This document shows, piece after piece, positions 32,306-49,338 of a stretch of DNA of 64,000 nucleotides (its first letter is position 1; each line of letters begins with the position of its first letter). The notes below the pieces were generated by a model. It saw only the letters and a program-made list of their open reading frames with translations. It did not search any database and was not told the origin of the DNA. Source of the DNA: Clavibacter zhangzhiyongii (GTDB lineage Bacteria > Actinomycetota > Actinomycetes > Actinomycetales > Microbacteriaceae); NCBI RefSeq assembly GCF_014775655.1, contig NZ_CP061274.1:124001-188000 (forward strand), written 5' to 3'. Both the position numbers and the translations under genes were made by a program.

Positions 32306-32612
32306 CGTGCCACCTCCGGTCGGGAGCGGGGTGCGCGTGCAGGGTGCGGTCATGCCGGCGGGCGTCCACGGACACCCCAGTACAGGGGCGATCGGCGCGT
32401 GAGATCCGCATGCTTCCGGGCGACGGCGGCGCACGTGCTACTCGGGGCAGGCGAACGTCATCCTCGGGGAGGAGGGGCCGATCCATACAGTCTGCGGTGG
32501 GGAGCTGATCCTCCCCACCGCGTCGCCGAGGCCCTGGGACGCGTCCCCTCTCCCGCGCGTCCGCGGCACAGCCATGGTGCGGACACGCGGTCCTGCACAC
32601 CTTGGAGATGCC
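32306..32612. other. Intergenic region between divergent APC permease and LPVTG protein
   Basis: 307 bp. The left part carries the permease ribosome site (32311-32317); no clear promoter for the permease is seen. The right part, from 32486, holds the conserved promoter and leader of the LPVTG gene, described separately. Confidence 0.6.
32486..32612 (+). promoter_or_regulatory. Conserved 5' leader of LPVTG protein 1 (-10 element plus hairpin)
   Basis: TACAGT (32486-32491) is a -10-like element. Two bases later a perfect 10-bp hairpin begins: GCGGTGGGGA (32494-32503), loop GCTGATCC, TCCCCACCGC (32512-32521). A roughly 90-base stretch with a shared CGCGTCCCCTCTCCCGC core follows, ending in GGAG before the ATG. 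The same arrangement at nearly identical spacing precedes the second LPVTG gene. It could be a regulatory or stabilising mRNA leader; it matches no riboswitch I can name. Confidence 0.55.
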
Positions 32613-33941
32613 ATGACCCGCACCACCACGACCGCCGTTCGCGGCCGGTCCTTCCGCCGCGCAGCGGTGGGCGCCTGCCTCTCGGCGTCGCTCGTCCTGC
32701 TGCCCCTCGCAATGGCGCCCGCCGCCCACGCCGAGACCGCGGCCGCCGCCGAGACCGAGGCCGTCCCCCAGGGGGCAGCTCCCGCCGAGGACGCGACCGC
32801 CGCGCCCGCCGCGCCCGCCGCCCCCGCCGAGGGATCGGCGCCCCTCGCCGACGCCCCGGTCGAGGTCAGCCCCACCCCCGTGCCCGCGCCCACCGCCGCG
32901 CCGGACCTCGCGGCCACGCCGGCCCCTTCCGCCGCGGCCGACGCATCCGCCCCCGCCGCGGCGGCCCCCGCCGCGGACGCCCCCGCCGTCGACCTGCCCT
33001 TCACCTGGACCGGGCCCGACCTCGGATCGCCCCTCACCATCTCGAAGGACGTGCCCTTCACCGGCACCGGGCACCCGGGCAGCCTCGTCTCGGCCTCGTA
33101 CACCAACGCCGACGGCCAGCTCGCGATCGCGGGCTACGGCTTCGTGGCGGCCGACGGCGCGTGGTCGTTCTCGGCCGGCTTCGGCGACCTGACGGAGGGC
33201 GCCAGGACCGCCCGCGTCGAGGTCACGCAGGTGCTGCTCGAGACCGAGGAGCCCGTGACGGAGTCGCTCGCGCGCACCATCCGCTTCGCCGAGGCCCCCG
33301 TCGGGCCGTTCGTGCGCGGCGAGATGGGCTTCACCCTCGAGCGGACCACGCTCAGCATCTCCGAGGCCAGGGACAAGCGGATCGGCATCCGCCCCGCCGC
33401 GACGGGCTTCCTCCGGTACGAGTCCGTCGAGGTGACCATCCAGGACGAGGACGGGCAGTTCGTCGGCATCAGGATCGACAGCGTCGCCGGCATCGACCCC
33501 GGCATCCCCGTCGACGAGCGCATGAGCACCCGCTCGCTCGACGACCGCGTCCGCGCGGACGAGGACGGCACCTACCGCCAGGACCTCTCCCTGTACGGCC
33601 CGCTCCAGCCGGGCAAGTACTTCTTCGTCGTCCGCGGTCTCGAGTCCGGCATGGCGCAGGGCATCGACTTCTTCCTCACGGAGGACGAGGCCGGCTCGCC
33701 CGCGGACCCGGCGGTCCCGTCGCTGCCCGGCACGCCGGTCCCCGTGCCGTCCGCGCCGGCGATCGTCCCCGCGGGCACGGCTCCGAAGCCGATCGCGAAG
33801 CCCTCGGCCCACGGCGACCAGCTCCCCGTCACGGGCGCGGACGGGACCGCGGCCCTCGGCCTCGGCACCCTCGGCGCGGTGCTGGCGCTGGTCGGCGCGG
33901 GTGCCCTCGTCGCCCGTCGCCGCCTGCGCTCCGCGGAGTAG
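32613..33941 (+). CDS. LPXTG-anchored surface protein 1 (paralogue of the gene at 45241)
   Basis: A 442-residue secreted wall protein. The signal peptide ends AHA-ET at residue 40. An Ala/Pro-rich linker (about 41-140) follows, then a core of about 230 residues beginning PFTWTGPDL and containing FAEAPVGPFVRGE, and a second Pro linker. The sorting tail has LPVTG at 404-408, a hydrophobic helix and ARRRLRSAE. Sortase would cleave at Thr and attach it to peptidoglycan; no sortase gene is in the window. The core matches no family I know. Leader, core and terminator recur at 45116-46620. Confidence 0.85.
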   Translation: MTRTTTTAVRGRSFRRAAVGACLSASLVLLPLAMAPAAHAETAAAAETEAVPQGAAPAEDATAAPAAPAAPAEGSAPLADAPVEVSPTPVPAPTAAPDLAATPAPSAAADASAPAAAAPAADAPAVDLPFTWTGPDLGSPLTISKDVPFTGTGHPGSLVSASYTNADGQLAIAGYGFVAADGAWSFSAGFGDLTEGARTARVEVTQVLLETEEPVTESLARTIRFAEAPVGPFVRGEMGFTLERTTLSISEARDKRIGIRPAATGFLRYESVEVTIQDEDGQFVGIRIDSVAGIDPGIPVDERMSTRSLDDRVRADEDGTYRQDLSLYGPLQPGKYFFVVRGLESGMAQGIDFFLTEDEAGSPADPAVPSLPGTPVPVPSAPAIVPAGTAPKPIAKPSAHGDQLPVTGADGTAALGLGTLGAVLALVGAGALVARRRLRSAE

Positions 33942-33969
33942 CGCGCGCGACACCGCTCCCCGCACGCCA

Positions 33970-34001
33970 CGACGGCCGGACCCCTCGGGATCCGGCCGTC
34001 G
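33970..34001. terminator. Hairpin terminator after LPVTG protein 1
   Basis: Perfect 11-bp arms CGACGGCCGGA and TCCGGCCGTCG with a 10-nt loop, 28 bases past the stop and before the convergent exporter. It shares its stem sequence with the hairpin after the paralogous gene. Confidence 0.7.
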
Positions 34002-34049
34002 CGTCGTGGGGCGCTGCCGCCGCCGGGACCCGGCACGCGCGGACCGCGG

Positions 34050-35279
34050 TCATCCGCCCGCGCGGGCCCGCGATGCCCAGAGCTGCGCGGCGAGTCCCAC
34101 CACGATGAAGCCGCACATCAGCGCCCCCATCGCGGTCGCGGTGCCGCCGAGCGCGCCCGCGAGCGGCGTCGCCAGCCCCCCGAGGCCGAACTGGAGCCCG
34201 CCGACGAGCGCCGAGGCCGTGCCGGGGTGCCGGTGGCCGAGCGCCTGCGTGAGGGTGATGGATCCGGGGATCACCCACCCCCAGCCCGCGGTGACGAGGG
34301 CGAGGGCCGGCCAGACCAGCGCGGGACCCGAGCCCGTGACCGCGCCGACGAGCACGAGGGTCGACCCGACCGCGCAGGTGGCCAGGCCGATCGTGAAGAG
34401 GCGGTCCTCCTCGAAGCGCCCGATGAGGCGGCGGAAGACGAGCGTCGACGCGATCATGCAGGACGCGTTCGAGGCGAACACCAGCGTGTAGAGGCCCTCG
34501 CCGAAGCCGTACTGCTCCTGGAACACGAACGAGGAGGTGGCGATGTAGGAGAAGAAGCCGATGGTCGCGGTGCAGCCGGTGACGAGGTACCAGCGGAAGC
34601 GGGGGATCCGGAGCAGCTCCGCCATGCGGCCGAGGACGGCGCGGGGCGAGGTGCCGCCGGCGCCGCTGCGGACGAGCGTCTCCGGCAGCAGGCGCGCCGC
34701 GGCGAGGGTGAGGGCCAGTCCGAGCGCGGCCAGCACGACGAACGCGGCGCGCCAGGACGAGAAGGTCAGCACGAGGCCCCCGACGAGCGGGGCGACGACC
34801 GGGCCGACGGAGTTGACGACGGCGAGCGTCGCGAAGAGGCGGCTGCGGAGGGCGCCGGTGGAGGCGTCGCCGACCATCGCACGGGCCGAGACCGCGGCGG
34901 CCGCACCGCCCAGGCCCTGCACGACGCGGGCGAGGATCAGGGTCGTCGCGTCGGGGGAGATCGCGCAGACCACGCTCGCCACGGTGAAGAGCGCGGTCCC
35001 GGCGAGGAGGATGCGGCGGCGACCCACGCCGTCGCTGATCGGCCCGATGACCAGCTGCCCGACGGCGAACGCGACGAGGAACGCGGTCAGCGTGAGCTGC
35101 ACCGAGGCCGTCGAGGCGTCGAGGTCGGCGGCGATGGCCGGGAGGCCCGGGATGTAGAGGTCGGTCGCGAAGGGCGAGATGCCGACGATGAGCGCGACGG
35201 TGAGGAGCGGGCCGCGGCGTGCGGTCCACGACGTCCGCGGGTCGGGGTCGGGATGCGGGTGCGGGGCGTCGTCGCTCAT
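34050..35279 (-). CDS. Bcr/CflA family multidrug efflux MFS transporter
   Basis: A 409-residue MFS drug/proton antiporter of the Bcr/CflA group. It has twelve helices, the DLYIPGLPAIAADL segment in helix 1, motif A GPISDGVGRRRIL in loop 2-3, and RVVQGLGGAAAAVSARAMVGD in helix 4 with the conserved motif B/C residues. Members export bicyclomycin, chloramphenicol, sulfonamides or cysteine. It is monocistronic, divergent from hsdM, with no adjacent regulator. Confidence 0.92.
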   Translation of the reverse strand: MSDDAPHPHPDPDPRTSWTARRGPLLTVALIVGISPFATDLYIPGLPAIAADLDASTASVQLTLTAFLVAFAVGQLVIGPISDGVGRRRILLAGTALFTVASVVCAISPDATTLILARVVQGLGGAAAAVSARAMVGDASTGALRSRLFATLAVVNSVGPVVAPLVGGLVLTFSSWRAAFVVLAALGLALTLAAARLLPETLVRSGAGGTSPRAVLGRMAELLRIPRFRWYLVTGCTATIGFFSYIATSSFVFQEQYGFGEGLYTLVFASNASCMIASTLVFRRLIGRFEEDRLFTIGLATCAVGSTLVLVGAVTGSGPALVWPALALVTAGWGWVIPGSITLTQALGHRHPGTASALVGGLQFGLGGLATPLAGALGGTATAMGALMCGFIVVGLAAQLWASRARAGG

Positions 35280-35374
35280 CCGTCCCGACAGTAGACCGGT
35301 CGCCGCCGGAAGGCGTCAGCTGCAGCAGCGTGCGGCGCCACGTCCAGCGGCCATGGTGCGGATATCGTCAATGC

Positions 35375-36835
35375 GTGATCACTGGAGAGCTCAAGAGCAA
35401 GATCGACCGGGTCTGGGACGCGTTCTGGTCAGGGGGCATCTCGAACCCGCTCGAGGTGATCGAGCAGATCACCTACCTGCTGTTCGTGCGGCGGCTCGAT
35501 GACCTGCAGACGCTCGCCGAGAGGAAGGCACGCGCCACCGGCGTCGCGCTCGAGAAGCCGATCTACCCGCCGCGGCAGAGGGAGCTGCGCTGGAGCCGCT
35601 TCAAGAACATCGACGCCGAGGTCATGTTCGAAGTCGTGCGCGACGAGGTGTTCCCCTTCCTGCAGGACCTCGGCGGCGACGGGTCGACGTACGGCGAGCA
35701 CATGCGCGACGCCCGCTTCACGATTCCGACGCCCGCGTTGCTGTCGCGGGTCGTCGACATGCTCGATGACATCCCCATGGCCGAGCGCGACACCAACGGC
35801 GACCTGTACGAGTACCTGCTGTCGAAGATCGCGTCCGCAGGAGTGAACGGGCAGTTCCGCACGCCCCGGCACATCATCGAGTTGATGGTCGCGATGACGG
35901 CGCCGCAGCCGGAGGACGAGATCTGCGACCCCGCGTGCGGCACGGCCGGATTCCTCGTCGCCGCATCGGAGTACGTGCGGCGCGAGCATCCCGGAGTGAT
36001 GACGAACGCGGCGCAGCGCTCGCACTTCCACTCGAGCATGTTCCACGGGTTCGACTTCGACTCGACCATGCTGCGCATCGGCAGCATGAACATGCTGCTG
36101 CACGGCGTCGAATCGCCCGACATTCGCTACCGCGACTCGCTCTCCGAGGGCGTGAGCGCCGATTCGGAGCGCTATTCGCTGATCCTGGCGAACCCGCCGT
36201 TCGCCGGTTCGCTCGACTATGAGTCGACGTCGAAGGACCTGCAGCGCGTCGTGAAGACGAAGAAGACCGAGCTGCTCTTCATGGCCCTGTTCCTGAAGCT
36301 GCTGAAGCCGGGCGGCCGCGCCGCCGTGATCGTGCCGGACGGCGTGCTGTTCGGGTCGTCGACGGCGCACAAGGCAATGCGGCGCATGCTCGTGGAGGAC
36401 CAGAAGCTCGACGCGGTCGTGAAGCTGCCCTCCGGTGTCTTCCGCCCGTACGCGGGTGTCTCGACCGCGATCCTGTTCTTCACGAAGACGGACTCCGGCG
36501 GCACCGACGACGTCTGGTTCTACGACGTGCGCGCCGACGGCTTCTCGCTCGACGATAAGCGCAACCCGATCGAGGCCAACGACCTGCCGGATGCGCTCGC
36601 TCGCTGGGCGGACCGTCGGACCACGGAGCGCGACAGGGCTCGCACCGACCAGTCATTCACGGTCCCCAAGGCGGACATCGTCGCGCAGGGCTACGACCTT
36701 TCCATAAACCGTTACAAGGAGGTCGTGCACGATGAGGTCGAGCACAGGCCACCGCTGGAGATCATCGCGGACATCGAGGCCCTCGAGGCCGAGATAGCGG
36801 AGGGGCTCTCTCAGCTTAAGGCGATGCTCGCGTGA
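35375..36835 (+). CDS. hsdM: Type I restriction-modification system DNA methyltransferase subunit HsdM
   Basis: A 486-residue N6-adenine methyltransferase. The N-terminal HsdM_N helical domain (about 5-140) is followed by the catalytic domain with SAM-binding DPACGTAGF at 185-193 and catalytic NPPF at 273-276. It modifies the recognition sequence specified by HsdS and is a core part of both the methylase and restriction complexes. GTG 35375 fits the family start (ITGELKSKIDRVWDAFWSGG) and follows TATCGT (35363-35368) by six bases, so it is probably leaderless. Its stop overlaps hsdS as TGATG. Confidence 0.95.
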   Translation: MITGELKSKIDRVWDAFWSGGISNPLEVIEQITYLLFVRRLDDLQTLAERKARATGVALEKPIYPPRQRELRWSRFKNIDAEVMFEVVRDEVFPFLQDLGGDGSTYGEHMRDARFTIPTPALLSRVVDMLDDIPMAERDTNGDLYEYLLSKIASAGVNGQFRTPRHIIELMVAMTAPQPEDEICDPACGTAGFLVAASEYVRREHPGVMTNAAQRSHFHSSMFHGFDFDSTMLRIGSMNMLLHGVESPDIRYRDSLSEGVSADSERYSLILANPPFAGSLDYESTSKDLQRVVKTKKTELLFMALFLKLLKPGGRAAVIVPDGVLFGSSTAHKAMRRMLVEDQKLDAVVKLPSGVFRPYAGVSTAILFFTKTDSGGTDDVWFYDVRADGFSLDDKRNPIEANDLPDALARWADRRTTERDRARTDQSFTVPKADIVAQGYDLSINRYKEVVHDEVEHRPPLEIIADIEALEAEIAEGLSQLKAMLA

Positions 36836-37974
36836 TGACTGCACGGCTCGGCGACGTGGCGCTCATTCAGCGTCAATCTGTTAACCCAAACAAAATCGAC
36901 CCAAATACGATCTATCTTGGACTCGAGCACCTCGCTCGAGGCGGTCGAATAATCGGCCATGAGACGGTGGGTAGCGCCGCTCTATCCAGCTCAAAGTTCA
37001 CTTTTTCTGCCAAACATGTCCTTTATGGGAAGCTCCGTCCAAATCTTGGCAAGATCAGTAGACCGACATTCAGTGGCGTCTGTAGCACGGATATTCTTCC
37101 CGTGCTCCCTGGCCCGCACCTCGATCGCGATTACCTTGCCCATTATCTGTCTCAGCCAGTAATGGTGGAATTCGCTTCGTCCCGAGCGGCTGGCGCCAAC
37201 TTGCCTAGACTAAGCCCATCTGTCCTTAATGAATTCGAGATTCCTGTTCCGCGGCTAGAGGAGCAACGGCGGATCGCCGCGATTCTCGATCACGCCGAAA
37301 CGCTGCGCACTAAGCGCCGCCGGCTACTAGCTTCTCTAGATTCCCTAGCGCCACGTCGATTTGACGAGGTCTTCGCAGACCGAGCTGGACACCGTGTCCC
37401 GATGGGCCGCTTAATTGATGAGCAACAGATTGGTTTGGATCGTCGTTCTAGTGAGCAGGGCGCCGATCGCTCGCACGGTTATATAAAGATGGACGCCATA
37501 ACTCGGGATGGCCACATGGATTTAGCGCGTCTTACTTACGTCAATGCATCGGTCGACGAAGTGAGCAAATATACGGTCCACAATGGCGACCTACTCCTAA
37601 ATACCAGGAATTCTCGGGAGCTGGTAGGTAAATCTGCAATCTTCCATGGGCTGCCGTGCCTATATAATAATAACATCAGTCGCATTCGTTTCACTGAGCA
37701 AGTGGATTCACGGTACATACACGCCTTTTTGTGGTCGCGCGAAGGGCGCCGGCAGCTCGAGTCTCGGAAGTCGGGAACCACGAATGTAGTTGCGATGTAC
37801 GCGAAGGACTTCGCGACGATCTCGGTCCCGGTGCCTGATCTCGAGGAACAGCAAGCGTTCAGCGCCATGGTTGCGGCGGTCGACATTCGACGGATTCAAG
37901 TGAGGCGCTCATTGCAGTTGGATGACAGCTTGTTTGCGTCACTGCAAGCACGGGCATTCCGGGGCGAGCTGTGA
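36835..37974 (+). CDS. hsdS: Type I restriction-modification specificity subunit HsdS
   Basis: A 379-residue specificity subunit with two target-recognition domains (about 1-145 and 185-340). Each is followed by the conserved helical spacer: EEQRRIAAILDHAETLRTKRRRLL in the middle and EEQQAFSAMVAAVDIRRIQVRRS at the end. The two domains together read a bipartite DNA target. Base composition drops sharply relative to both neighbours, with many A/T third positions and runs such as TATATAATAATAAC, so this gene, or its recognition domains, has a different origin. ATG 36835 lies in the TGATG overlap. Confidence 0.95.
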   Translation: MTARLGDVALIQRQSVNPNKIDPNTIYLGLEHLARGGRIIGHETVGSAALSSSKFTFSAKHVLYGKLRPNLGKISRPTFSGVCSTDILPVLPGPHLDRDYLAHYLSQPVMVEFASSRAAGANLPRLSPSVLNEFEIPVPRLEEQRRIAAILDHAETLRTKRRRLLASLDSLAPRRFDEVFADRAGHRVPMGRLIDEQQIGLDRRSSEQGADRSHGYIKMDAITRDGHMDLARLTYVNASVDEVSKYTVHNGDLLLNTRNSRELVGKSAIFHGLPCLYNNNISRIRFTEQVDSRYIHAFLWSREGRRQLESRKSGTTNVVAMYAKDFATISVPVPDLEEQQAFSAMVAAVDIRRIQVRRSLQLDDSLFASLQARAFRGEL

Positions 37975-40900
37975 CCGCCAACTTCGCCTTCGCGCGCGCC
38001 GCCTGGCCGGACGTCTTCGAGGACGCATCCCGAGCGGAGTCCTACCTCTCCAGCGACCCCCGGTCGGCGTGCTTCTACAGCCGCCGCGCGGTGGAGCAGC
38101 TCGTGGGTCACCTCTACGACGTGCTCGACCTGCCCGTCCCGTACCAGGACGACCTCGCCGCCCGCATCAACGACGCCGGCTTCGCACGGGTCGCGGGTGT
38201 GGGCATCGGGCAGAAGCTGAACCTGATCCGCAAGCTCGGCAACCAGGCGGTGCACGCGCAGCATGCGATCCGACCCGACATCGCGCTCGCGGCGCTGCGC
38301 GAACTGCACCACGTGCTGGTGTGGGCGACGTTCCGGCACTCGGCACACCCGGAGGCCGTGCCGACTGGTGAGCAGTTCGATCCGCAGCTCGCCGCGCGCG
38401 CGGCACCGCTGACCCGTGACGACGTGCAGCGGCTGGCGGCCAGGTTCGCTGCGCAGGACCAAGCCCACGCCAGGGCTCTCGCCGACCGCGACGAGTTGGC
38501 GGCCGAGCAGGCCGCGGAGATCGAGCACCTGCGCGAGCAGATCGCTGCGGCTCAGGCGACGAACCACGGTCCCGACGACCACGACTACTCCGAGGCCGAG
38601 ACCCGGGACCTCTTCATCGACGTGCTGCTGGCCGAAGCGGGCTGGCCCCTCACTGACCCGCGTGATCGCGAGTTCCAGGTCACGGGCATGCCCAACGGGC
38701 CGGGAGTCGGTTTCGTCGATTACGTGCTGTGGGGCACCGACGGACTGCCGCTCGCCGTCGTCGAGGCGAAGCGCACGAGGGCGAGCGCGCAGGTCGGGCA
38801 GCAGCAGGCGAAGCTCTACGCCGACAGCCTGGAGGTGGCCTACGGGCGGCGCCCTGTCGTGTTCTTCACGAACGGGTACGAGCACTGGCTGTGGGACGAC
38901 GAGGCGGGGTATCCGCCGCGGCAGGTCGCCGGGTTCTACACGCGCAGCGAGCTCGAGCTGATGATCCAGCGCCGCTCGACCCGCCTGCCGCTGTCGGGGG
39001 CCGCGGTCGACGCGGCCATCGCGGGCCGGCACTACCAGGCGCAGGCGATCCGAGCGGTGGGGGACGCGTTCGACCGCAAGCAGCGGCAGGCGCTGCTGGT
39101 CATGGCGACCGGGTCCGGCAAGACGCGGACGGTCATCGCGCTGACCGATCAGCTCACGAAGGCCAATTGGGCGAAGCGCATCCTGTTCCTCGCGGATCGC
39201 ACCGCGCTGGTGAAGCAGGCTGCGAACGCGTTCAAGGCCCATCTGCCGGGAGCCACGACGGTCAACCTGGTGACCGACAGGAACGCCGAAGGGCGCGTCT
39301 ACGTGTCGACGTATCCCACGATGATGAACCTGATCAATGAGACCTCGGACGGCGAGAGCGGTTCGATGCGGCGATTCGGGCCGGGGTTCTTCGACCTGAT
39401 CGTGATCGACGAGGCGCACCGGTCGATCTACCAGAAGTACGGGGCGATCTTCGACTGGTTCGACGCCCTGCTCGTCGGGCTGACGGCCACGCCGAAGGAC
39501 GAGGTCGACCACAACACCTACCGGCGTTTCCACCTCGAGGATGGCGTGCCGACGGACTCCTACGGCCTCGATGAAGCGGTCGAGGAACGATTCCTCGTAC
39601 CGCCGCGCGGGGTGTCTGTCGGCACCCGATTCCTGCGTCAGGGCATCCGGTACGACGAGCTCAGCCCGGCGGAGAAGGAGGACTGGGACGCACTTGACTG
39701 GGGTGAAGACGGCACCCCGACCTCGGTCGAGGCGGACGAGCTGAACCGGTTCCTCTTCAACGAGGACACCGTCGACAAGGCGCTGGCCACCCTCATGACG
39801 CGCGGGTACAAGGTCGCGGGCGGCGACCGACTCGGCAAGACCATCGTGTTCGCGAAGAACCAGGCGCACGCCGAGTTCATCCAGCGTCGCTTCGACGAGC
39901 AGTACCCCGAGCACGCGGGGCACTTCGCGCGGACCATCACGCACAGCACGCCGTACGCGCAGAGCTTGATCGACGACTTCTCGATGGCCGACCACGCGCC
40001 GCACATCGCGATCTCCGTCGACATGCTCGACACGGGCATCGACGTTCCCGAGATCGTGAACCTCGTGTTCTTCAAGCCGGTGCGGTCGAAGTCGAAGTTC
40101 TGGCAGATGATCGGCCGCGGCACGCGACTGCGCCCGGACCTGTTCGGCGAGGGCCAGGACAAGCAGGACTTCCTCGTCTTCGACTTCTGCGGCAACCTCG
40201 AGTTCTTCAGCCAGGACCTGCCCGGCAGCGAGGGCTCCATCCAGAAGTCCCTCACCCAGCGGCTGTTCGAGGCGCGCCTCGGACTGATCACCGGGCTCGA
40301 CCGGGTGCAGCTGGATCGGGAGCTGCGTTCTTCGACCGCCGACACCCTCCATCGGATCGTGGCGGGGATGAACCTCGACAACTTCCTCGTGCGCCCGGCG
40401 CGGCGGTGGGTCGAGCGGTTCGCCGAGGCGGCGGCGTGGGATGAGCTGACGCTCGAGGACGCGGGCGAGGTGCTCATGCATCTGGCCGGGCTGCCATCGA
40501 GCGTCACCGACGACGACACCGACGCCAAGCGCTTCGATCTGCTGATCCTGCGGCGGCAGCTCGCGCAGCTCGACGGCGACCTGGTCGCCGCCGAGCGCAT
40601 CCGCCAGCAGGTGCAGGCGATCGCGACGGCGCTGCTGTCGAAGTCGGCGATCCCGTCGGTCGCGGAACAGCTCGTGCTGTTGGAGGAGATCGCGGGCGAC
40701 GACTGGTGGGTCGACGTGACCCTCGACATGCTCGAGGCCGTGCGTCTCCGCATCCGCGCTCTCGTGCGCTTCGTGCCGAATGTGACCCGCCCGCGCGTCT
40801 ATACGGACTTCATCGACGAGCTCGGCGAAGTCACCGAGATCGTGCTCCGCCAGACCACGCCGGGCACCGACCTCGAACGGTTCCGGGCGAAGGCGACCGT

Positions 40901-41351
40901 GTACCTGCGGCAGCACGAGGACCACCTCGCGCTTCAGCGGCTACGGCGCAACCGACAGCTGACGCCGGACGACCTCAGCGCGCTCGAGACGATGCTGCTC
41001 GCCAGCGGAGCGGGCTCGAAGGCCGACATCGAGCTGGCGGCCGCACAGGCGCAGGGGCTCGGGCCGTTCATCCGCTCGCTCGTCGGCCTGGATCGCGAGG
41101 CGGCGCTCGAGTCCTTCGCTCGCTTCCTCGACGGGTCGCGCTTCTCGGTCGATCAGATCCGCTTCATCCACCTGATCGCCGACGAGCTCACGGCGAACGG
41201 CGTGATGGACGCGGGGCGCCTTTACGAATCGCCCTATACCGACCGGGCCCCGAGCGGCATCGACTACCTCTTCGACGAGACCGACGTGACCGCCATCGTG
41301 AAGATCCTTGACGACGTCAAGGCGCACGTCCGGCCCGAGGACGTGGCCTGA
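37971..41351 (+). CDS. hsdR: Type I restriction-modification endonuclease/translocase subunit HsdR
   Basis: A 1126-residue restriction subunit. Residues 1-125 look like a DUF4145 helical domain, followed by a short coiled coil. The nuclease core has D250, E265 and K267 (VDYVLW, VVEAK), and the SF2 motor has Walker A ATGSGKT near 379-385 and DEAH at 480-483, with motif VI GRGTRLRPDLFG. A C-terminal EcoEI-type domain binds the methylase. It translocates DNA and cuts when the target is unmethylated. GTG 37971 overlaps the hsdS stop. All key residues are intact. Confidence 0.95.
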   Translation: MTANFAFARAAWPDVFEDASRAESYLSSDPRSACFYSRRAVEQLVGHLYDVLDLPVPYQDDLAARINDAGFARVAGVGIGQKLNLIRKLGNQAVHAQHAIRPDIALAALRELHHVLVWATFRHSAHPEAVPTGEQFDPQLAARAAPLTRDDVQRLAARFAAQDQAHARALADRDELAAEQAAEIEHLREQIAAAQATNHGPDDHDYSEAETRDLFIDVLLAEAGWPLTDPRDREFQVTGMPNGPGVGFVDYVLWGTDGLPLAVVEAKRTRASAQVGQQQAKLYADSLEVAYGRRPVVFFTNGYEHWLWDDEAGYPPRQVAGFYTRSELELMIQRRSTRLPLSGAAVDAAIAGRHYQAQAIRAVGDAFDRKQRQALLVMATGSGKTRTVIALTDQLTKANWAKRILFLADRTALVKQAANAFKAHLPGATTVNLVTDRNAEGRVYVSTYPTMMNLINETSDGESGSMRRFGPGFFDLIVIDEAHRSIYQKYGAIFDWFDALLVGLTATPKDEVDHNTYRRFHLEDGVPTDSYGLDEAVEERFLVPPRGVSVGTRFLRQGIRYDELSPAEKEDWDALDWGEDGTPTSVEADELNRFLFNEDTVDKALATLMTRGYKVAGGDRLGKTIVFAKNQAHAEFIQRRFDEQYPEHAGHFARTITHSTPYAQSLIDDFSMADHAPHIAISVDMLDTGIDVPEIVNLVFFKPVRSKSKFWQMIGRGTRLRPDLFGEGQDKQDFLVFDFCGNLEFFSQDLPGSEGSIQKSLTQRLFEARLGLITGLDRVQLDRELRSSTADTLHRIVAGMNLDNFLVRPARRWVERFAEAAAWDELTLEDAGEVLMHLAGLPSSVTDDDTDAKRFDLLILRRQLAQLDGDLVAAERIRQQVQAIATALLSKSAIPSVAEQLVLLEEIAGDDWWVDVTLDMLEAVRLRIRALVRFVPNVTRPRVYTDFIDELGEVTEIVLRQTTPGTDLERFRAKATVYLRQHEDHLALQRLRRNRQLTPDDLSALETMLLASGAGSKADIELAAAQAQGLGPFIRSLVGLDREAALESFARFLDGSRFSVDQIRFIHLIADELTANGVMDAGRLYESPYTDRAPSGIDYLFDETDVTAIVKILDDVKAHVRPEDVA

Positions 41352-41550
41352 GCTCACCGAATGCTGATGAGGTCACTCGCTACCTCGCCGACGGAGGGCT
41401 CGCGCATGTTCGAGATCCGCAATCCGACCACCCGCATCGGATGAGCGGGCACGCCGTCCGCCCGGCCACCGCCCGTCGATGCGCCTAGCCTCGACGGGGG
41501 CGCACCGCACCGGCCGCGCCCACCCGCATCCACGAGGAAGAGGAACGCGC

Positions 41551-42381
41551 ATGACGACCTGGCTGATCACGGGATGCTCCACGGGGCTCGGGCGCGCCTT
41601 CGCCGAGGAGGCGCTGTCGCGCGGGAACGACGTCGTCGTCACCGCGCGCGACGCCGCGAACGTGCAGGACCTCGCCGACCGCTACCCCGAGCACGTCCTC
41701 GCGCTCGACCTCGACGTGACCGACCAGGCGCAGGTGTCGCTCGCCGTGGACGAGGCGACCGCCCGCTTCGGCGGCGTCGACGTGCTCGTCAACAACGCGG
41801 GCTACGGCTACCGCGCGGCCGTCGAGGAGGGCGACGAGGCCGACGTCGCGCGCCTGTTCGACACGCAGTTCCACGGCAGCGTCCGCATGATCAAGGCGGT
41901 GCTGCCCGGCATGCGTCAGCGTCGCAGCGGCACGATCGTCAACCTCTCGTCCATCGGGGCCGCCCGCACGGGCGCGGGATCCGGCTACTACGGCGCGGTC
42001 AAGGCGGCCATCGAGCAGATGACCATGGCGCTCCGCACCGAGCTCGAGCCGCTGGGGATCGTCGCCACGGTCGTGGCGCCCGGGTCCTTCCGCACCGACT
42101 TCTCGGGCCGCTCGCTCACGCAGTCGGCCACGGTGATCGACGACTACGCCGAGACCGCAGGCAAGCGCCGCAAGGAGAACGACACCACCGACGGCACGCA
42201 GCCGGGCGACCCCGCGCGCGGCGCGAAGGTGCTCGTCGACGCGGTCGAGGCGGGTGCTCCCTACTACCTGCTGCTCGGCGGCGACGCGATCGAGATCGTC
42301 ACGGGCGCCCTCGACGACCTGCGCGCCGACATCGACGCGTGGGCGGAGCGCAGCCGGTCGACGGGGTACGGCGCGAGCTGA
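41551..42381 (+). CDS. Short-chain dehydrogenase/reductase (SDR) family oxidoreductase
   Basis: A 276-residue classical SDR. The cofactor motif TGCSTGLG is at residues 7-14, followed by NNAG, the catalytic Ser in NLSSIG and the YxxxK pair in YYGAVKAA. It uses NAD(P)H to reduce or oxidise an unknown alcohol/ketone. ATG 41551 follows GAGGAAGAGGA; a TAGCCT -10-like hexamer is at 41486-41491. It is the first ordinary chromosomal gene after the restriction locus. Confidence 0.92.
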   Translation: MTTWLITGCSTGLGRAFAEEALSRGNDVVVTARDAANVQDLADRYPEHVLALDLDVTDQAQVSLAVDEATARFGGVDVLVNNAGYGYRAAVEEGDEADVARLFDTQFHGSVRMIKAVLPGMRQRRSGTIVNLSSIGAARTGAGSGYYGAVKAAIEQMTMALRTELEPLGIVATVVAPGSFRTDFSGRSLTQSATVIDDYAETAGKRRKENDTTDGTQPGDPARGAKVLVDAVEAGAPYYLLLGGDAIEIVTGALDDLRADIDAWAERSRSTGYGAS

Positions 42382-42389
42382 TCCGCGGG

Positions 42390-42416
42390 GGCGGCGCCGG
42401 TCATCGCGGCGCCGCC
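42390..42416. terminator. Hairpin between convergent SDR and small membrane protein
   Basis: Perfect 10-bp arms GGCGGCGCCG and CGGCGCCGCC with a 7-nt loop, located between two convergent stop codons. It is likely a bidirectional terminator. Confidence 0.6.
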
Positions 42417-42418
42417 GC

Positions 42419-42676
42419 CTACGCCGCGGGAGGCGGGGGCTGCTCGCCGTCCGCGGTCGTGCGGCCGGCCGTGCTACCGGCGGGGCGGATCCCCATCACG
42501 AAGAAGGTCACGCCGAGCACGAGGAACGGCAGACCGGCGACGCGGGTGTCCTCGAGGGTGAGCATGAGGGCCAGGCCGAGCATGCCGAACACGATGCCGA
42601 GGGCGGTGTTCTGGTTCGTGTCCTCGGCGGCCGCGGCCGGGTCGTCGGGATCCGCGGGCGTCCTCGGTTCGCTCAT
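42419..42676 (-). CDS. Small membrane protein, hypothetical
   Basis: An 85-residue protein with an acidic Pro/Asp-rich head, two adjacent hydrophobic segments (about 25-42 and 48-65) and a polar, proline-rich tail ending PPPPAA. No family is recognised. Start ATG 42676; an ATG three codons upstream is possible. It lies 57 bp downstream of ogt on the same strand and may be co-transcribed. Confidence 0.6.
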   Translation of the reverse strand: MSEPRTPADPDDPAAAAEDTNQNTALGIVFGMLGLALMLTLEDTRVAGLPFLVLGVTFFVMGIRPAGSTAGRTTADGEQPPPPAA

Positions 42677-42733
42677 GCCGTCCACGCTAGGGAGCCGGGC
42701 CCGCGGAGCGCGTCCGCCTCGTGGGGGATGCGG

Positions 42734-43369
42734 TCAGCGCCCGGATCGGCGCCCCTCCAGCTCCAGCAGCGTCGTCTTCGCCGCGAGCCCGCCGATGTAG
42801 CCGCCGAGCGTGCCGTCGGAGCGGAGGACGCGATGGCAGGGGATCACGACGGGCAGCGGGTTCGTCGAGCAGGCCGTGCCGACCGCGCGCGTGGCGGCCG
42901 GGCTGCCCGCGGTCTCGGCGACCTCGCGGTAGGTGCGCGTGGATCCGTACGGGATCTCCGGGAGCAGCCGCTGCACGCGGTCGCGGAAGCCGGTGGAGAG
43001 GCGGCGGTCGAGCGGGAGGTCGAAGGAGCGGCGGCGGCCGGCGAAGTACTCGTCGAGCTCGCGGGCGGCCTGGTCGAGGCGCTTCGGCGCGCGCAGGATC
43101 CGCGGGCCGAGCCGGCGCGCGAGGTCGCCGAGCACGGTGTCGTGGTCCTCGCGGGAGTAGGCGACGCGGATCAGGCCGCGCTCGGTCGCGGCGAGGAGCA
43201 GCGGGCCGACGGGCGAGTCGACGGTCGTGAAGCCCACGTCGAGGGCGCCGTCGGCCTCGGCCGCGTCGGCGAGGCGGAGGCGGAGGGCGTCGAGGGCGGG
43301 CGCGGTGGGATCCGCCCGCTCCAGCGCGTCGGGGTCGAGGAAGCGGGTGGTGTCGTCGGGGTCGGTCAC
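42734..43369 (-). CDS. ogt: Methylated-DNA--protein-cysteine methyltransferase
   Basis: A 211-residue O6-alkylguanine-DNA alkyltransferase. The acceptor cysteine is C178 in VVIPCHRVLRSDG, with the preceding helix-turn-helix IPYGSTRTYREVA and the arginine finger region. It repairs O6-methylguanine by irreversible transfer to its own cysteine. The head is about 40 residues longer than E. coli Ogt. GTG 43369 overlaps the stop of the sigma factor gene as GTGA, so the two are coupled. Confidence 0.93.
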   Translation of the reverse strand: MTDPDDTTRFLDPDALERADPTAPALDALRLRLADAAEADGALDVGFTTVDSPVGPLLLAATERGLIRVAYSREDHDTVLGDLARRLGPRILRAPKRLDQAARELDEYFAGRRRSFDLPLDRRLSTGFRDRVQRLLPEIPYGSTRTYREVAETAGSPAATRAVGTACSTNPLPVVIPCHRVLRSDGTLGGYIGGLAAKTTLLELEGRRSGR

Positions 43370-43899
43370 GGTCGTCCTCCAGCGGTCGCGGCGGGTGCGG
43401 ATGCGGATGCGCGGTCGGTCCCCGGCGGGCCCGCCCCCATCGTCCGCCGCAGGTTCGCGACCCCGTCGGCCGCCGCGCGCCGCGCGGCCTCGGGCGTCCC
43501 GCCGACGATCGCCGCCACCTCCGCGTACGGCAGCCCGCCGAGGTGGCGGTACGCGACCGCGAGCCGCTGCCGCTCGGGCAGGCGCGCGACCGCGGCCCAC
43601 AGGTCGGGGTCGCCGGATCCGGGGACGCCCATGTCGGAGACCCGCTCGGGCACCTCCTCGACGGGGAGCGCGCGGCGGCCGCGGGCGCGGATCGCGTCGA
43701 GGGCCTTGCGGTGCGCGATGGTGACGAGCCAGGCGCGCACGTCGGCCCGCGGCCCGAGCCGCGGGTACGCGACGAGCGCCGACAGGAACGTCTCCGACCA
43801 CGCGTCCTCGGCGTCGGCGTGCCCGCCGAGCACGGCCCGGCACACGCGGAGCACCACGGCGCCGTGCTCGGTCACGACCCTGTCGAACGGCTGCATCAT
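43366..43899 (-). CDS. ECF-type RNA polymerase sigma factor
   Basis: A 177-residue sigma-70 family protein with region 2 (VLGGHADAEDAWSETFLSAL) and region 4 (LPERQRLAVAYRHLGGLPYAEVAAIVGGTPEAARRAA). There is no obvious anti-sigma gene. It is followed with overlap by ogt, so it probably serves, or is expressed with, alkylation-damage repair. Start choice is uncertain: tandem ATGs at 43899 and 43896 follow GGAG closely. Its C-terminal 25 residues are Ala/Pro-rich and may be unstructured. Confidence 0.85.
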   Translation of the reverse strand: MMQPFDRVVTEHGAVVLRVCRAVLGGHADAEDAWSETFLSALVAYPRLGPRADVRAWLVTIAHRKALDAIRARGRRALPVEEVPERVSDMGVPGSGDPDLWAAVARLPERQRLAVAYRHLGGLPYAEVAAIVGGTPEAARRAAADGVANLRRTMGAGPPGTDRASASAPAATAGGRP

Positions 43900-44233
43900 C
43901 TCCACACCGGGTAGACGCCGGGGCGGGGTGATCCGTGAGGTCGGCGTGCGGATCAGTCTCCCGGATCCTCCGCCCGGGCCGGTAGGCCGACGCCGCGCCG
44001 CGCACGCGGGCAGCCCCGCCTGCGGACGCGCCGTGCGCCTCCTGGCGGTCTCCGATCCGTCGCCCGTGCAGTCCGTAGGGACCACCCGAGACGGTCCCGA
44101 CGGATGACGACCCGGCGCCCCGCGGCCCGGAGGATGGAGGAGCGGCCCACCCCCGGCCGCGCCGCTCCGCGAGGAGCGACCGCCGCCGGCCCGGCCCCCA
44201 CGGGTCGGCGGCCACGACGACACGAGGATCCGC
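43900..44233. other. Intergenic region between sigma factor and response regulator
   Basis: 334 bp between divergent genes. The only strong element is the inverted repeat at 44072-44104, listed separately. No ORF with its own ribosome site stands out. Confidence 0.5.
44072..44104. repeat. Long inverted repeat upstream of the response regulator
   Basis: 12-bp arms TCCGTAGGGACC and GGTCCCGACGGA pair with one mismatch around a 9-nt centre. It lies 130 bp before the response-regulator start, and could be an operator or the end signal of an unseen transcript. Confidence 0.5.
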
Positions 44234-44977
44234 ATGACCGGCACCGTCAGCCCCGCAGCCCGCGACGACGAGCAGACCGCGCCCGGCGTGCCCGGCGTGC
44301 CGCGCGTGATCCGCGTGTTCGTGGTCGACGAGGAGGCGCCCATCACGCAGCTCCTGTCGCTCGCGCTCCGCATGGAGGGCTGGGACGTGCGCGTCTTCGC
44401 GACCGGCCGGGCCGCGATCGACGCCGCCGTCGAGGCCGCGCCCGACGCGATCCTGCTCGACATGACGCTCCCCGACGTCTCGGGCGTGGAGGTCGTCGCC
44501 GAGCTCCGCCGCGCGGGCGTCGCGTCGCCCGTCCTCTTCCTCACCGGCCGCGACTCGCTCGAGGACCGGCTCGCGGCGTTCGGCGCCGGCGCCGACGACT
44601 ACGTGACCAAGCCGTTCGGCCTCGAGGAGGTCGTCGAGACCCTCCGCGTGCTCTTCCGCCGCCGCGGCCTGGCCCCGGCCCTCGTCACCGCGGGCGACCT
44701 CGTGCTCGACCCGGCCTCGGGCGAGGCGTGGCTCGCGGGCGTGCCGCTGACGCTGGATCCGAGGGACCTCGCCGTGGTGGCCGCGCTCGCCGAGGAGCCG
44801 ACCCGCCGCCTGTCCCGACGCGAGCTGACGCACCGCCTGGCGGACGGCGGCTGGGGCGTGGTCGCCCCGCGCGCGCTCCTCGACCTGCCGTCCGTGACGG
44901 GTCGCGTGGCCGGTCGCGACCAGGTCGTGCTGGTCCGCGTCGCGGGCGACGACCTCGTGCTCGCCCCCTCGTCCTGA
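44234..44977 (+). CDS. Orphan response regulator, OmpR-like architecture
   Basis: A 247-residue protein. Residues 26-140 form a complete receiver domain: acidic pocket D32/E33, phospho-acceptor D76 in LLDMTLPDVSG, switch T104 and K126 in YVTKPFGL. The rest has the length and opening (GDLVLDPASGEAWLAGVPLTLDPRDLAVV) of an OmpR winged helix, but the usual DNA-recognition block (about VRVHVSRLRRKL) is not recognisable. So it may be degenerate or bind something else. No histidine kinase lies nearby. ATG 44234 follows ACGAGGA. LPVTG protein 2 is next on the same strand. Confidence 0.82.
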   Translation: MTGTVSPAARDDEQTAPGVPGVPRVIRVFVVDEEAPITQLLSLALRMEGWDVRVFATGRAAIDAAVEAAPDAILLDMTLPDVSGVEVVAELRRAGVASPVLFLTGRDSLEDRLAAFGAGADDYVTKPFGLEEVVETLRVLFRRRGLAPALVTAGDLVLDPASGEAWLAGVPLTLDPRDLAVVAALAEEPTRRLSRRELTHRLADGGWGVVAPRALLDLPSVTGRVAGRDQVVLVRVAGDDLVLAPSS

Positions 44978-45115
44978 CGCGGGCCGTCCGCGGCCCGCTG
45001 GCGCCCACCCCAGTCCGGGGGTCGATCCCGCGTGTCACCCCCGCAACTCCGGGGATCACGAGTCACACGCGTCACACTGCCCCGAATATTTCCCCAGGTG
45101 GGTAGCGGAAATCAA

Positions 45116-45240
45116 TACAGTCGGCGGTGGGGAGCTGATCCTCCCCGCCGCGTCCCCGAGACCCCGGAGCGCGTCCCCTCTCCCGCACGGCCGCGGCACA
45201 GCATCGACGCGGACGGGCGGTCGGCACCACTGGAGATGTC
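45116..45240 (+). promoter_or_regulatory. Conserved 5' leader of LPVTG protein 2 (-10 element plus hairpin)
   Basis: TACAGT (45116-45121) is followed by the hairpin GCGGTGGGGA (45124-45133), loop GCTGATCC, TCCCCGCCGC (45142-45151). Relative to leader 1, one A-to-G change turns a base pair into a wobble, leaving the fold intact. The remaining leader keeps the CGCGTCCCCTCTCCCGC core and the terminal GGAG before ATG 45241. The region upstream of TACAGT is not conserved. Confidence 0.55.
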
Positions 45241-46554
45241 ATGACCCGTCCCACCCCCGCCGCCGGCCGCGGCAGGTCGTTCCGCCGCGCTGCCGCGGGC
45301 GCCTGCCTCTCGGCATCGCTCGTGATCCTGCCGCTCGCGATGGCGCCCGCCGCCCACGCCGAGACCCTCCCCGCGCCCGTCGCCGAGGCGACCCCCGCCG
45401 CGGAGCCGACCCCCGCCGTCGAGGCGCCCGTCGAGACCCCCGCCGCGACCCCGACCCCCGCGGTCGAGGCCCCCGCCGAGGACGCCGCCCCGACGCCCGC
45501 GCCGACCGAGGAGCCGACGCCCGCCGTCGACGCCCCGGCCGAGACGACGCCCGCGCCGACCCCGTCCACGGGTGCCCCGACGCCCGGCGCGCCCGCGACC
45601 GGCCTGCCGTCGCTCGAGCCGACCGCGCCCGTCGTCGAGCTGCCCTTCACCTGGACCACGCCCGACCGCGGCGTCGCCCTCCCGATCAACGAGGCCGTGC
45701 CGTTCGCCGGCACCGGCACCGCGGGCAGCATCGTCACCGCCAGCTACTTCAACGCCGTGGGCGTCAAGTCGATCGCCGGCATCGGCATCGTCGGCGCGGA
45801 CGGCGCGTACGCCTTCCCCGCGAGCTTCACCGAGCTGCTGCAGGACTCCAAGACCGCGAGCGTCACCCTCACGCAGGTCGGCCTCGACCTCACCGTGAAG
45901 GGCGAGATCCGCGGCCTCGTGCGCTTCGCCGAGGCGCCCGTCGGCCCGTTCGTGCGCGCCGAGGCGTCGTTCTCGACCATCTCGCCGATCACCGTCACCG
46001 AGGCGACCAGCATCCTCGGCGGCCTCAAGGTGAACGCGACCGGCTACCTCCGCTACGAGGCCGTCGAGGTCACCGTGACCGCGCCCGACGGCCGCGTCAT
46101 CCAGCTCAGCGACGCCAACGGCGGCGTGGGCGTCGGCACGCGCTCGCTGAAGGACCTCGTGCGCGCCGACGTCGACGGCACCTTCGCGCAGCCGATCATC
46201 CTGTTCGGGGACATCCAGCCGGGCACCTACCAGGTCTCCGTCGCGGGCCTCGAGTCGGGCCTCACGCAGGGCGGCACCGTCGAGCTCACCGGCGCGGACG
46301 CCGGCGGACCGGTCATCCCGGGCCTGCCGACGCTCCCCGGCACGCCCACCCCCGCGCCGACCGCGCCCTCGATCGACCCCGCGGGCACCGCCCCGAAGCC
46401 GATCCACAAGCCGGCCGCGCACCACGACGACACGCTGCCCGTCACGGGCACCGACGGCGCCGCGGCCCTCGGCCTGGGCGGCCTCGGCGCGCTGCTCGCG
46501 CTCGTCGGCGCCGGCTCGCTCGTCGCCCGCCGCCGCCTGCGCTCCGCGGAGTAG
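45241..46554 (+). CDS. LPXTG-anchored surface protein 2 (paralogue of the gene at 32613)
   Basis: A 437-residue secreted wall protein. The signal peptide is nearly identical to that of protein 1 and also ends AHA-ET at residue 40. An Ala/Pro/Thr/Glu linker (about 41-130) leads to a 225-residue core beginning PFTWTTPDR, with RFAEAPVGPFVRAE, TGYLRYEAVEVTV and GLESGLTQGG matching protein 1. The tail has LPVTG at 399-403, a helix and ARRRLRSAE. The two differ most in the repetitive linker. A sortase elsewhere must anchor it. Function is unknown; adhesion or host contact is speculation. Confidence 0.85.
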   Translation: MTRPTPAAGRGRSFRRAAAGACLSASLVILPLAMAPAAHAETLPAPVAEATPAAEPTPAVEAPVETPAATPTPAVEAPAEDAAPTPAPTEEPTPAVDAPAETTPAPTPSTGAPTPGAPATGLPSLEPTAPVVELPFTWTTPDRGVALPINEAVPFAGTGTAGSIVTASYFNAVGVKSIAGIGIVGADGAYAFPASFTELLQDSKTASVTLTQVGLDLTVKGEIRGLVRFAEAPVGPFVRAEASFSTISPITVTEATSILGGLKVNATGYLRYEAVEVTVTAPDGRVIQLSDANGGVGVGTRSLKDLVRADVDGTFAQPIILFGDIQPGTYQVSVAGLESGLTQGGTVELTGADAGGPVIPGLPTLPGTPTPAPTAPSIDPAGTAPKPIHKPAAHHDDTLPVTGTDGAAALGLGGLGALLALVGAGSLVARRRLRSAE

Positions 46555-46580
46555 CGGCACGGCACCACCCGCACCACGCA

Positions 46581-46620
46581 CGACGACGGCCGGATCCCCG
46601 AGGGGATCCGGCCGTCGTCG
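46581..46620. terminator. 19-bp perfect hairpin after LPVTG protein 2
   Basis: The arms 46581-46599 and 46602-46620 are perfectly complementary around GA, starting 27 bases past the stop. The inner sequence CGACGGCCGGA is shared with the terminator of protein 1. It lies between convergent genes, so it probably stops both transcripts. Confidence 0.75.
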
Positions 46621-46651
46621 CGTGCGGGTGCGTCCGGGGGACGCGGGGGGA

Positions 46652-47404
46652 TCAGGCGCGGCGGGGGCGCGTGGCGTCCTGCGCCTTCTGCTGGGCCTGC
46701 TTCGCCTGCTGCTGCACGCTCGGGGCGTCCTTCGCGTGCTGCTGGATCTTCGGGGCCTCCTCCTCGGCCTTCGTCAGCATCGCCTCCCAGCGGGCCTGCA
46801 TCGGCTTGATGAGGCCGCCGCCGGCGCCGACGATGATGACGCCGGCGATGATCGCGAGCACGGCGATGAGGATCGGGGTGGTGACGGTCGTCGCGACCTC
46901 GATCTGGTTGAGGGCCGCGGTGATCCCGAGGAACAGGATGAAGACGGCGACGACGTTGCCGAGCACCTTCCCGTAGGACAGGCCGCCCAGCGTGTTCTGG
47001 ATGAGGCCCTTGGCGCCGGCGGCGATGGCCGACGCGATGACCACGATGATGATCGCGACGATGATCTTCGGCAGGAAGCCGATGATCCCCTGGAGCAGGT
47101 CGCTCACGGGGTTCGGCCCGAAGACGCCGAAGGCGAACTGCAGGACGAAGAGCACGAGCGTGTAGTACACGATCTTCGCGACGATGTCGGAGGCGTCGAG
47201 CTTCGATCCGGCGAGGGCCTTCTTGATGCCGCCGCGCTCGACCAGGCGGTCGAAGCCGACCTTCTCGAGCAGCTTGTCGAGGGCCTTCGAGATGACCTTC
47301 GCGACGATCAGGCCGACGACGAGGATGAGCAGGAAGAGCAGGGCGAGGGGCACGAACGCGATGACCGCGGCGAGCCCGTCCTGGAGTACGGCGGGGAAGT
47401 TCAT
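46652..47404 (-). CDS. Conserved TM-helix (MscS-like/CmpX) membrane protein
   Basis: A 250-residue protein with about five membrane helices, containing two repeats of the conserved TM-helix pattern (LVVGLIVAKVISKALDKLLEKVGFD and IIVVIASAIAAGAKGLIQNTLGG) and a Gln/Ala/Lys-rich coiled-coil tail. It resembles the CmpX/mechanosensitive-channel-related family, lacking the MscS beta domain. A role in osmotic or membrane-stress response is inferred from the family. It is downstream of the PRC-barrel stress gene on the same strand. Confidence 0.85.
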   Translation of the reverse strand: MNFPAVLQDGLAAVIAFVPLALLFLLILVVGLIVAKVISKALDKLLEKVGFDRLVERGGIKKALAGSKLDASDIVAKIVYYTLVLFVLQFAFGVFGPNPVSDLLQGIIGFLPKIIVAIIIVVIASAIAAGAKGLIQNTLGGLSYGKVLGNVVAVFILFLGITAALNQIEVATTVTTPILIAVLAIIAGVIIVGAGGGLIKPMQARWEAMLTKAEEEAPKIQQHAKDAPSVQQQAKQAQQKAQDATRPRRA

Positions 47405-47459
47405 GGGGTGGCCCTTTCAGGGTCGGGTGGGTCGACGCGGGGCGTCGGCGGAGGGTGCT

Positions 47460-47499
47460 GCGGTGGTGCGGTGGTGCGGTGGTGCGGTGGTGCGGTGGT
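47460..47499. repeat. Five exact tandem copies of GCGGTGGT
   Basis: An 8-bp unit is repeated five times without change between the DUF2382 gene stop and the TM-helix gene start. Slippage could vary the copy number. It is noncoding. Confidence 0.9.
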
Positions 47500-47579
47500 G
47501 CTCGGCCGGGCGGGCTGGATCCGCCCGGCCGGTGGCGGGACGACCGGCGGTCGTCCCGGCACCGGGGTCGTGCGGTGGA

Positions 47580-48428: not shown

Positions 48429-48482
48429 GGTGATGCTCCTATTCCCCGGCGGGGTGGCCGGAGGGTCGTGGTTTCGGGTGGC

Positions 48483-48495
48483 CTTACGGTGTAAG
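48483..48495. promoter_or_regulatory. Candidate TetR operator, copy 1
   Basis: CTTACGGTGTAAG: 5-bp perfect arms around GGT. It is 55 bp from the DUF2382 start, with the same outer half-sites as copy 2; centres are 25 bp apart. Confidence 0.6.
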
Positions 48496-48507
48496 CCCGA
48501 TGCCGAC

Positions 48508-48520
48508 CTTACGCCGTAAG
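48508..48520. promoter_or_regulatory. Candidate TetR operator, copy 2
   Basis: CTTACGCCGTAAG: 6-bp perfect arms around a single C. It sits just upstream of the -10-like TACCGT (48527-48532) of the TetR gene, where bound protein would block its promoter. Confidence 0.65.
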
Positions 48521-48602
48521 CCGCGCTACCGTGAAGCCCTCTGATGCGCTCGCCCTCAGCACCGCGCTGCCCGGGCCGCGCATCCGCTGGGAGGCATCCG
48601 CC

Positions 48603-49319: not shown

Positions 49320-49338
49320 CGGATCCGGCGGCGGCGGA

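What the first reader, a model, noticed from the sequence alone, without database searches (positions are those of the whole stretch)
32486..46620. Duplicated LPVTG surface-protein cassette with matching leader and terminator
Two secreted wall-anchored proteins (32613-33941, 45241-46554) share a near-identical signal peptide, a roughly 225-residue core I cannot assign to a family, and the same LPVTG tail. The noncoding parts are also shared: TACAGT plus hairpin leader and a CGACGGCCGG-based terminator. A whole transcription unit was duplicated about 12.6 kb apart, with the repetitive Pro/Ala linkers diverging most. This looks like a small surface-protein family with co-inherited regulation.
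Basis: partly seen in the sequence, partly recalled or inferred. Interest (0 to 1): 0.7.

Follow-up and report, generated by a model that had tools for sequence, protein, structure and literature searches.

The report
Ancient paired wall-anchored surface proteins
Two related proteins that a plant-associated bacterium probably fixes to its cell wall come from an old gene duplication that kept the same start and end signals, while only one copy keeps a control site also seen in front of a cell-wall gene; it is a modest, testable case rather than a new kind of system.

Summary
Copies A (32613-33941) and B (45241-46554) share signal peptide, two-module core, LPVTG tail, a TACAGT element with a 119-121-nt leader, and a terminator hairpin. 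The window is a Clavibacter chromosome. B is the genus gene: 17 of 18 genomes match it (14 full-length, 3 broken). A is in 2 of 18, at the same permease/MFS junction. On the protein tree A is sister to the 14 B tested, and A/B core synonymous sites are saturated, so the duplication is old. The leader still averages 78% A/B identity, implying selection on it. The core is not a new fold type: module 1 resembles bacterial Ig domains (Big_6), module 2 MG2-like Ig sandwiches, all sub-threshold or modest scores. 'Co-inherited regulation' is half right: shared sequence begins at TACAGT. Upstream, B alone has a conserved direct repeat, GTCACAcgcGTCACA, matching the published mycobacterial MtrA box; 18 of 19 exact sites (GTCACANNNGTCAC) in 18 genomes lie before B (14) or a LysM protein (4). 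Best reading: a wall-anchored Ig-stalk protein tied to wall-remodelling control, plus a faster-evolving paralogue lacking that site. Binding, expression and anchoring were not tested.

The parts
32613..33941 (+). Copy A, 442-aa predicted wall-anchored protein (signal peptide 32613-32738, Pro/Ala linker 32739-32993, Ig-like module 1 32994-33302, MG2-like module 2 33303-33677, second linker 33678-33818, LPVTG anchor region 33819-33941)
   Evidence: module borders are mine, used
32486..32491 (+). TACAGT, probable -10 element of A
   Evidence: identical in 18 of 18 aligned upstream regions, 16 B and 2 A; -10 role inferred
32492..32612 (+). Leader of A (121 nt) with 5' hairpin
   Evidence: folding predicted only
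33970..34001 (+). Terminator-like hairpin of A (no T run)
32373..34047 (.). Approximate extent of the A cassette as present/absent unit; in G007 the two flanks meet with a 20-bp overlap
45241..46554 (+). Copy B, 437-aa predicted wall-anchored protein (signal peptide 45241-45366, Pro/Ala linker 45367-45639, Ig-like module 1 45640-45936, MG2-like module 2 45937-46290, second linker 46291-46428, LPVTG anchor region 46429-46554)
   Evidence: module borders are mine, used
45116..45121 (+). TACAGT, probable -10 element of B
   Evidence: role inferred
45122..45240 (+). Leader of B (119 nt) with 5' hairpin
45043..45079 (+). B-only upstream block, 95% mean identity among 16 B, 42% A against B
45062..45076 (+). 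Direct repeat GTCACA-CGC-GTCACA, MtrA-box-like; exact in 14 of 16 B, 0 of 2 A; the only exact copy of GTCACANNNGTCACA in this genome
46579..46622 (+). Terminator-like hairpin of B (no T run)
44234..44977 (+). Response regulator gene just upstream of B (receiver domain; no DNA-binding family reached E 1)
   Evidence: found upstream of B in 15 of 15 other genomes examined

Best explanation
A and B are paralogous sortase-type surface proteins: a Sec-type signal peptide, a Pro/Ala-rich linker that would span the wall, two Ig-like beta modules (bacterial-Ig-like, then MG2-like) and an LPVTG tail. B is the old, near-universal Clavibacter gene. Its promoter carries an MtrA-box-like direct repeat about 47 nt upstream of the TACAGT element; the same repeat sits before a LysM-domain protein gene in four genomes, so B is most likely made together with wall-remodelling proteins under MtrAB or a related OmpR-type regulator. 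A is an old duplicate that kept the display parts, the core promoter, the leader and the terminator, lacks that repeat, evolves faster in its core and survives in 2 of 18 genomes. Shown: anatomy, distribution, conservation, loss or absence of the block in A. Inferred: anchoring, regulator identity, structural or adhesive role at the surface.
For: Full-length homology. B matched in 17 of 18 Clavibacter genomes, 14 with a full-length frame; A in 2 of 18 at the same permease/MFS junction. G000/G006 dS: A 0.24, B 0.23, MFS 0.25, so A came down vertically with its neighbours since these two split. Protein tree: A pair sister to 14 B, 97/90 and 99/97 support. Codon ML with F3x4: core A/B dS 2.3-7.5 (4 pairs), B/B 0.49-0.94 (4 pairs); omega A/A 0.13, B/B 0.02-0.06. 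Leader A/B 78% and TACAGTC 100% against 42% for the B-only block. Box: 14 of 16 B exact, 0 of 2 A; genus scan 19 exact GTCACANNNGTCAC sites in 18 genomes, 14 before B, 4 exactly 96 nt before the ATG of the LysM gene, 1 elsewhere; backward control 0. mtrA present, 381.2 bits over a cut-off of 300. [quoted passage not shown] Fold class: Big_6 and MG2 leads in relatives and MG2-containing complement/macroglobulin chains at the top for module 2. Two sortase genes, one class E over its cut-off, 238.7 against 160.
Confidence: 0.55

Rival explanations
1. The direct repeat before B is the site of the response regulator encoded right upstream (44234-44977), making a local regulator-target pair rather than an MtrA target.
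For: The gene is upstream of B on the same strand in the window and in 15 of 15 other genomes examined; it matches the MtrA model over positions 1-174 of 219 at 110.1 bits, so it is OmpR-like.
Against: No DNA-binding family reached E 1 in Pfam; the same repeat stands before a LysM gene elsewhere on the chromosome in 4 of 18 genomes, and it matches the published MtrA box.
Confidence: 0.3
2. The leader similarity between A and B is kept by gene conversion rather than by selection on the leader.
For: In G000 the hairpin 21-mer is identical in A and B, with a loop unlike that of most other B; signal-peptide plus anchor dS between A and B (0.63-1.84) is lower than core dS (2.3-7.5).
Against: Leaders group by copy, not by genome: A0/A6 116 of 128 and B0/B6 111 of 126 identical columns, against A0/B0 103 of 127 and A6/B6 102 of 128; the leader is 87% identical among 16 B of different species, where conversion with A cannot act in the 14 genomes lacking A.
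Confidence: 0.15
3. A was acquired from outside the sampled genus after the genus diversified, instead of being an old duplicate lost by most species.
For: A sits in 2 of 18 genomes; G007 has a clean empty site; A/B divergence is far deeper than B/B. The neighbour-gene tree is too poorly resolved to show whether the two carriers are sisters.
Against: Both carriers hold A at the same junction with dS equal to that of neighbours; none of the 12 matching genomes outside the genus has a closer relative of A (249 family genomes searched, best outside match 2.0e-28).
Confidence: 0.3
4. The palindrome right after TACAGT is a DNA operator for a repressor, not an RNA element.
For: GGGGAG-N6-CTCCCC is the most regular part of the leader and lies at the expected transcription start; covariation gives no support for an RNA structure (covariation term 0.04).
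Against: Conservation runs through the whole leader up to the start codon, including stretches outside the palindrome.
Confidence: 0.3

Closest known systems
LPXTG / LAXTG sortase-anchored surface proteins of Gram-positive bacteria (TIGR01167, NF058582, PF00746)
   Same: Signal peptide, repetitive linker, folded modules, LPVTG-hydrophobic-RRR tail
   Different: Tail models score at or under their curated cut-offs with these proteins; no known binding module named
Bacterial Ig-like modules, Big_6 (PF17936) and MG2 (PF01835)
   Same: Relatives in other Microbacteriaceae match Big_6 in module 1 and MG2 in module 2; module 2 model aligns best to MG2-containing chains
   Different: All matches are under Pfam's cut-offs; the window proteins themselves do not match Big_6 or MG2 at E 1
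[quoted passage not shown]
   Same: GTCACA-CGC-GTCACA before B, same 9-bp period
   Different: One exact site per genome or few, no binding shown; ChIP-derived and Streptomyces forms have wider spacing
Clavibacter SrtA-dependent surface display
   Same: Same genus; a review passage says SrtA is needed for leaf blisters in C. michiganensis (PMC10501053, passages)
   Different: Nothing in the passages seen names these two proteins

Membership tests
Sortase-anchored LPXTG surface protein | N-terminal signal peptide | tested here: inconclusive
   By eye: RGRSFRRAA - hydrophobic stretch - AHA; helix 14-33 in the model; no signal-peptide predictor was run
Sortase-anchored LPXTG surface protein | C-terminal LPXTG, hydrophobic helix, basic tail | tested here: met
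   LPVTG plus hydrophobic stretch plus RRRLRSAE in A and B; genome scan with TIGR01167 gives B 20.7 and A 18.2 bits over the 15.9 cut-off, but that scan rings over the cut-off in 9 of 14 control genomes; NCBIfam scan of the whole B gives 15.7, just under
Sortase-anchored LPXTG surface protein | A sortase in the genome | tested here: met
   Two PF04203 matches over the cut-off; one class E over its cut-off, one class-F-like at 154.7 against 166
Sortase-anchored LPXTG surface protein | Covalent attachment to peptidoglycan | not testable with these tools
   Needs wall fractionation
Big_6 bacterial Ig domain (module 1) | Pfam match over the gathering score | tested here: not met
   Window proteins: no match; relatives 21.0-23.7 bits against 27.6
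MG2 domain (module 2) | Pfam match over the gathering score | tested here: not met
   Relatives 18.5-19.1 bits against 32.8
MG2 domain (module 2) | MG2-like beta-sandwich fold | tested here: inconclusive
MtrA regulon member | MtrA box in the promoter | tested here: inconclusive
   Exact match to the footprint-derived repeat in 14 of 16 B promoters; 0 of 2 A
MtrA regulon member | mtrA present | tested here: met
   NF040689 at 381.2 bits over 300, C1:1017084-1017740
MtrA regulon member | Binding or MtrA-dependent expression | not testable with these tools
   No expression or binding data held
Known Rfam leader RNA | Rfam match at the leaders | tested here: not met
   Two matches up to E 1 in 32000-47000, both under gathering score and outside the leaders

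The most novel reading that the evidence does not exclude
The 119-121-nt leader is a new structured 5' mRNA element specific to this surface-protein family, kept through a duplication older than the sampled species, and B together with a LysM wall protein forms a very small, dedicated wall-remodelling regulon defined by the GTCACA-N3-GTCACA repeat, from which copy A has been uncoupled.
Probability: 0.2. Interest if true: 0.55.

Novelty: new member of a known kind. Interest (0 to 1): 0.4.

Why it matters
It gives a clean natural comparison: two copies with the same display parts, leader and terminator but different upstream control and different core evolution rates. It points to a specific regulatory link in Clavibacter (surface protein B and a LysM wall protein sharing one rare repeat) that can be tested directly, and it places an unassigned surface-protein core among Ig-like modules.

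Tried and rejected
Positive selection in the core: simple NG86 counts gave dN/dS 0.81 and 0.69 for A/B overall and pN above pS in parts of the core. With codon ML and F3x4 frequencies all omegas were under 1, so this was dropped as a base-composition effect. One fit there (Ig2, G000_A/G000_B) ran off to an unusable branch length.

RNA structure by covariation: 26 predicted pairs, 1 with changes on both sides, covariation term 0.04; the leader is too conserved to test. Rfam gave nothing at the leaders. PDB by sequence gave only chance-level hits. The neighbour-gene tree (SDR, ogt, response regulator) was too poorly resolved to tell loss from gain of A. The long-branch warning of the protein tree applies to the outgroups. 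DUF4197 in B (E 0.028 and 0.0082, under cut-off) was taken as chance. A leader-encoded peptide was considered by eye only and not pursued. Plain Foldseek searches never ran because the machine was full; only the VIA-align second look ran, and it barely tests module 1.

Literature: seven searches. None of the listed titles concerns this protein pair, and (Clavibacter with MtrA) listed two unrelated papers. I saw listings and passages only, no whole paper. The library lacks most subscription journals.

Full report
Where it is. The window is C1:124001-188000 of a single-contig genome of 3,098,336 bases. The five loci returned by a protein scan of named genome contigs are all titled Clavibacter, and the genus search finds relatives in 17 of 18 genomes.

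The observation. A (442 aa) and B (437 aa) are 52% identical by BLASTP, E 9e-117. Shared repeats in register cover leader, signal-peptide end and anchor end. The TACAGT+hairpin pattern with up to 3 mismatches is present only at these two places in the genome. The complete hairpin is not: 2 in the window, both behind A and B. In 15 loci of 20 kb from other genomes there are 12, of which 11 lie right behind A or B and 1 (G015) about 0.8 kb beyond B; 4 of the 15 loci have none. 21 other loci of the own genome have none (distances).

Distribution and age. B is matched in 17 of 18 genomes; 14 have a full-length frame of 408-437 aa, G007 and G002 are split between frames, G009 lacks the 5' part, and G017 has no match. 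A is in G000 and G006 only, 76% identical, both between the same permease and MFS genes. In G007 the two flanks meet with a 20-bp overlap. In five others (G003, G005, G010, G011, G013) 74 to about 2,340 bp of other sequence lies between them. In six (G001, G002, G008, G009, G012, G015) only the left flank was found in the stretch held, and in two (G014, G016) neither. Between G000 and G006, dS is 0.24 for A, 0.23 for B and 0.25 for MFS; other neighbours range from 0.13 to 0.36. A therefore descended with its surroundings. The protein tree puts the two A beside, not within, 14 B. Codon ML gives saturated A/B core dS (2.3-7.5, four pairs) against 0.49-0.94 among B, with omega 0.13 for A/A and 0.02-0.06 for B/B. 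The duplication is thus older than the sampled B divergence, or A came from outside; the neighbour-gene tree cannot decide.

Regulatory parts. Upstream regions of 16 B and 2 A were aligned. TACAGTC is identical in all 18. The leader averages 87% among B, 91% between the two A and 78% A to B. Just upstream, window 45043-45079 averages 95% among B but 42% A to B and 47% between the two A. Inside it the repeat GTCACACGCGTCACA is exact in 14 of 16 B; G015 and G002 have one change each, and both A lack it. GTCACANNNGTCACA is found exactly once in the own genome. At one mismatch there are 4 sites against 2 for the backward control. Genus-wide, GTCACANNNGTCAC gives 19 sites in 18 genomes, with at least one in 15; 14 lie before B, 4 (G000, G002, G007, G010) lie 96 nt before the ATG of one orthologous gene, and 1 lies elsewhere in G010; the backward control gives 0. 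In G000 that gene has three LysM matches. A review passage describes the M. [quoted passage not shown] Other passages give wider spacing or another motif. mtrA is present. A response regulator lies upstream of B in 15 of 15 other genomes examined, a rival binder of the repeat.

The leader. Single sequences fold into a strong 5' hairpin in most copies, and the alignment is 89% identical by column. Covariation gives no support and Rfam nothing. That the leader is a structured mRNA element is inference from its conservation through a saturated duplication.

How it most likely works. B is exported, anchored by a sortase (two present), and shows two Ig-like modules on a Pro/Ala stalk. It is probably expressed with wall remodelling under MtrA or the neighbouring regulator. 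A is a duplicate with the same display route, no such site and a faster-changing core. Anchoring, regulator and role are inferred. Interest is modest: the protein kind is known, while the conserved leader and the very small set of repeat-bearing promoters are the parts worth testing.

Noticed in passing
window 35366-41351: Type I restriction-modification genes (hsdM, hsdS, hsdR) lie between A and B; hsdM and hsdR relatives were found in 2 of 15 other loci (G010, G014), with more divergent hsdS (46-60%).
   Followed up: partly
L086 / L118 around 1501; G000 C1:1985253: A GTCACATCCGTCAC repeat stands 96 nt before a LysM-domain gene; same place in G002, G007 and G010.
   Followed up: partly
window 44234-44977: Response regulator with a receiver domain but no recognised DNA-binding domain, always upstream of B in the genomes examined.
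   Followed up: partly
L005, G000 C1:267473-268963: Third LPVTG protein, 496-aa open frame, with two module-2-like repeats by eye.
   Followed up: partly
L027/L029 (G007), L030/L025 (G002), L026/L043 (G009): B is broken in three genomes: split frames in G007 and G002, 5' part and leader missing in G009. Could be real or assembly error.
   Followed up: no
window 32574: In A an ATG in the leader is in frame with the gene and would give a 455-aa product.
   Followed up: no
window 46652-50268: The gene after B varies: an MscS-helix protein follows in the window and G015, a quinone-reductase-like gene follows directly in G002, G010 and G013.
   Followed up: no
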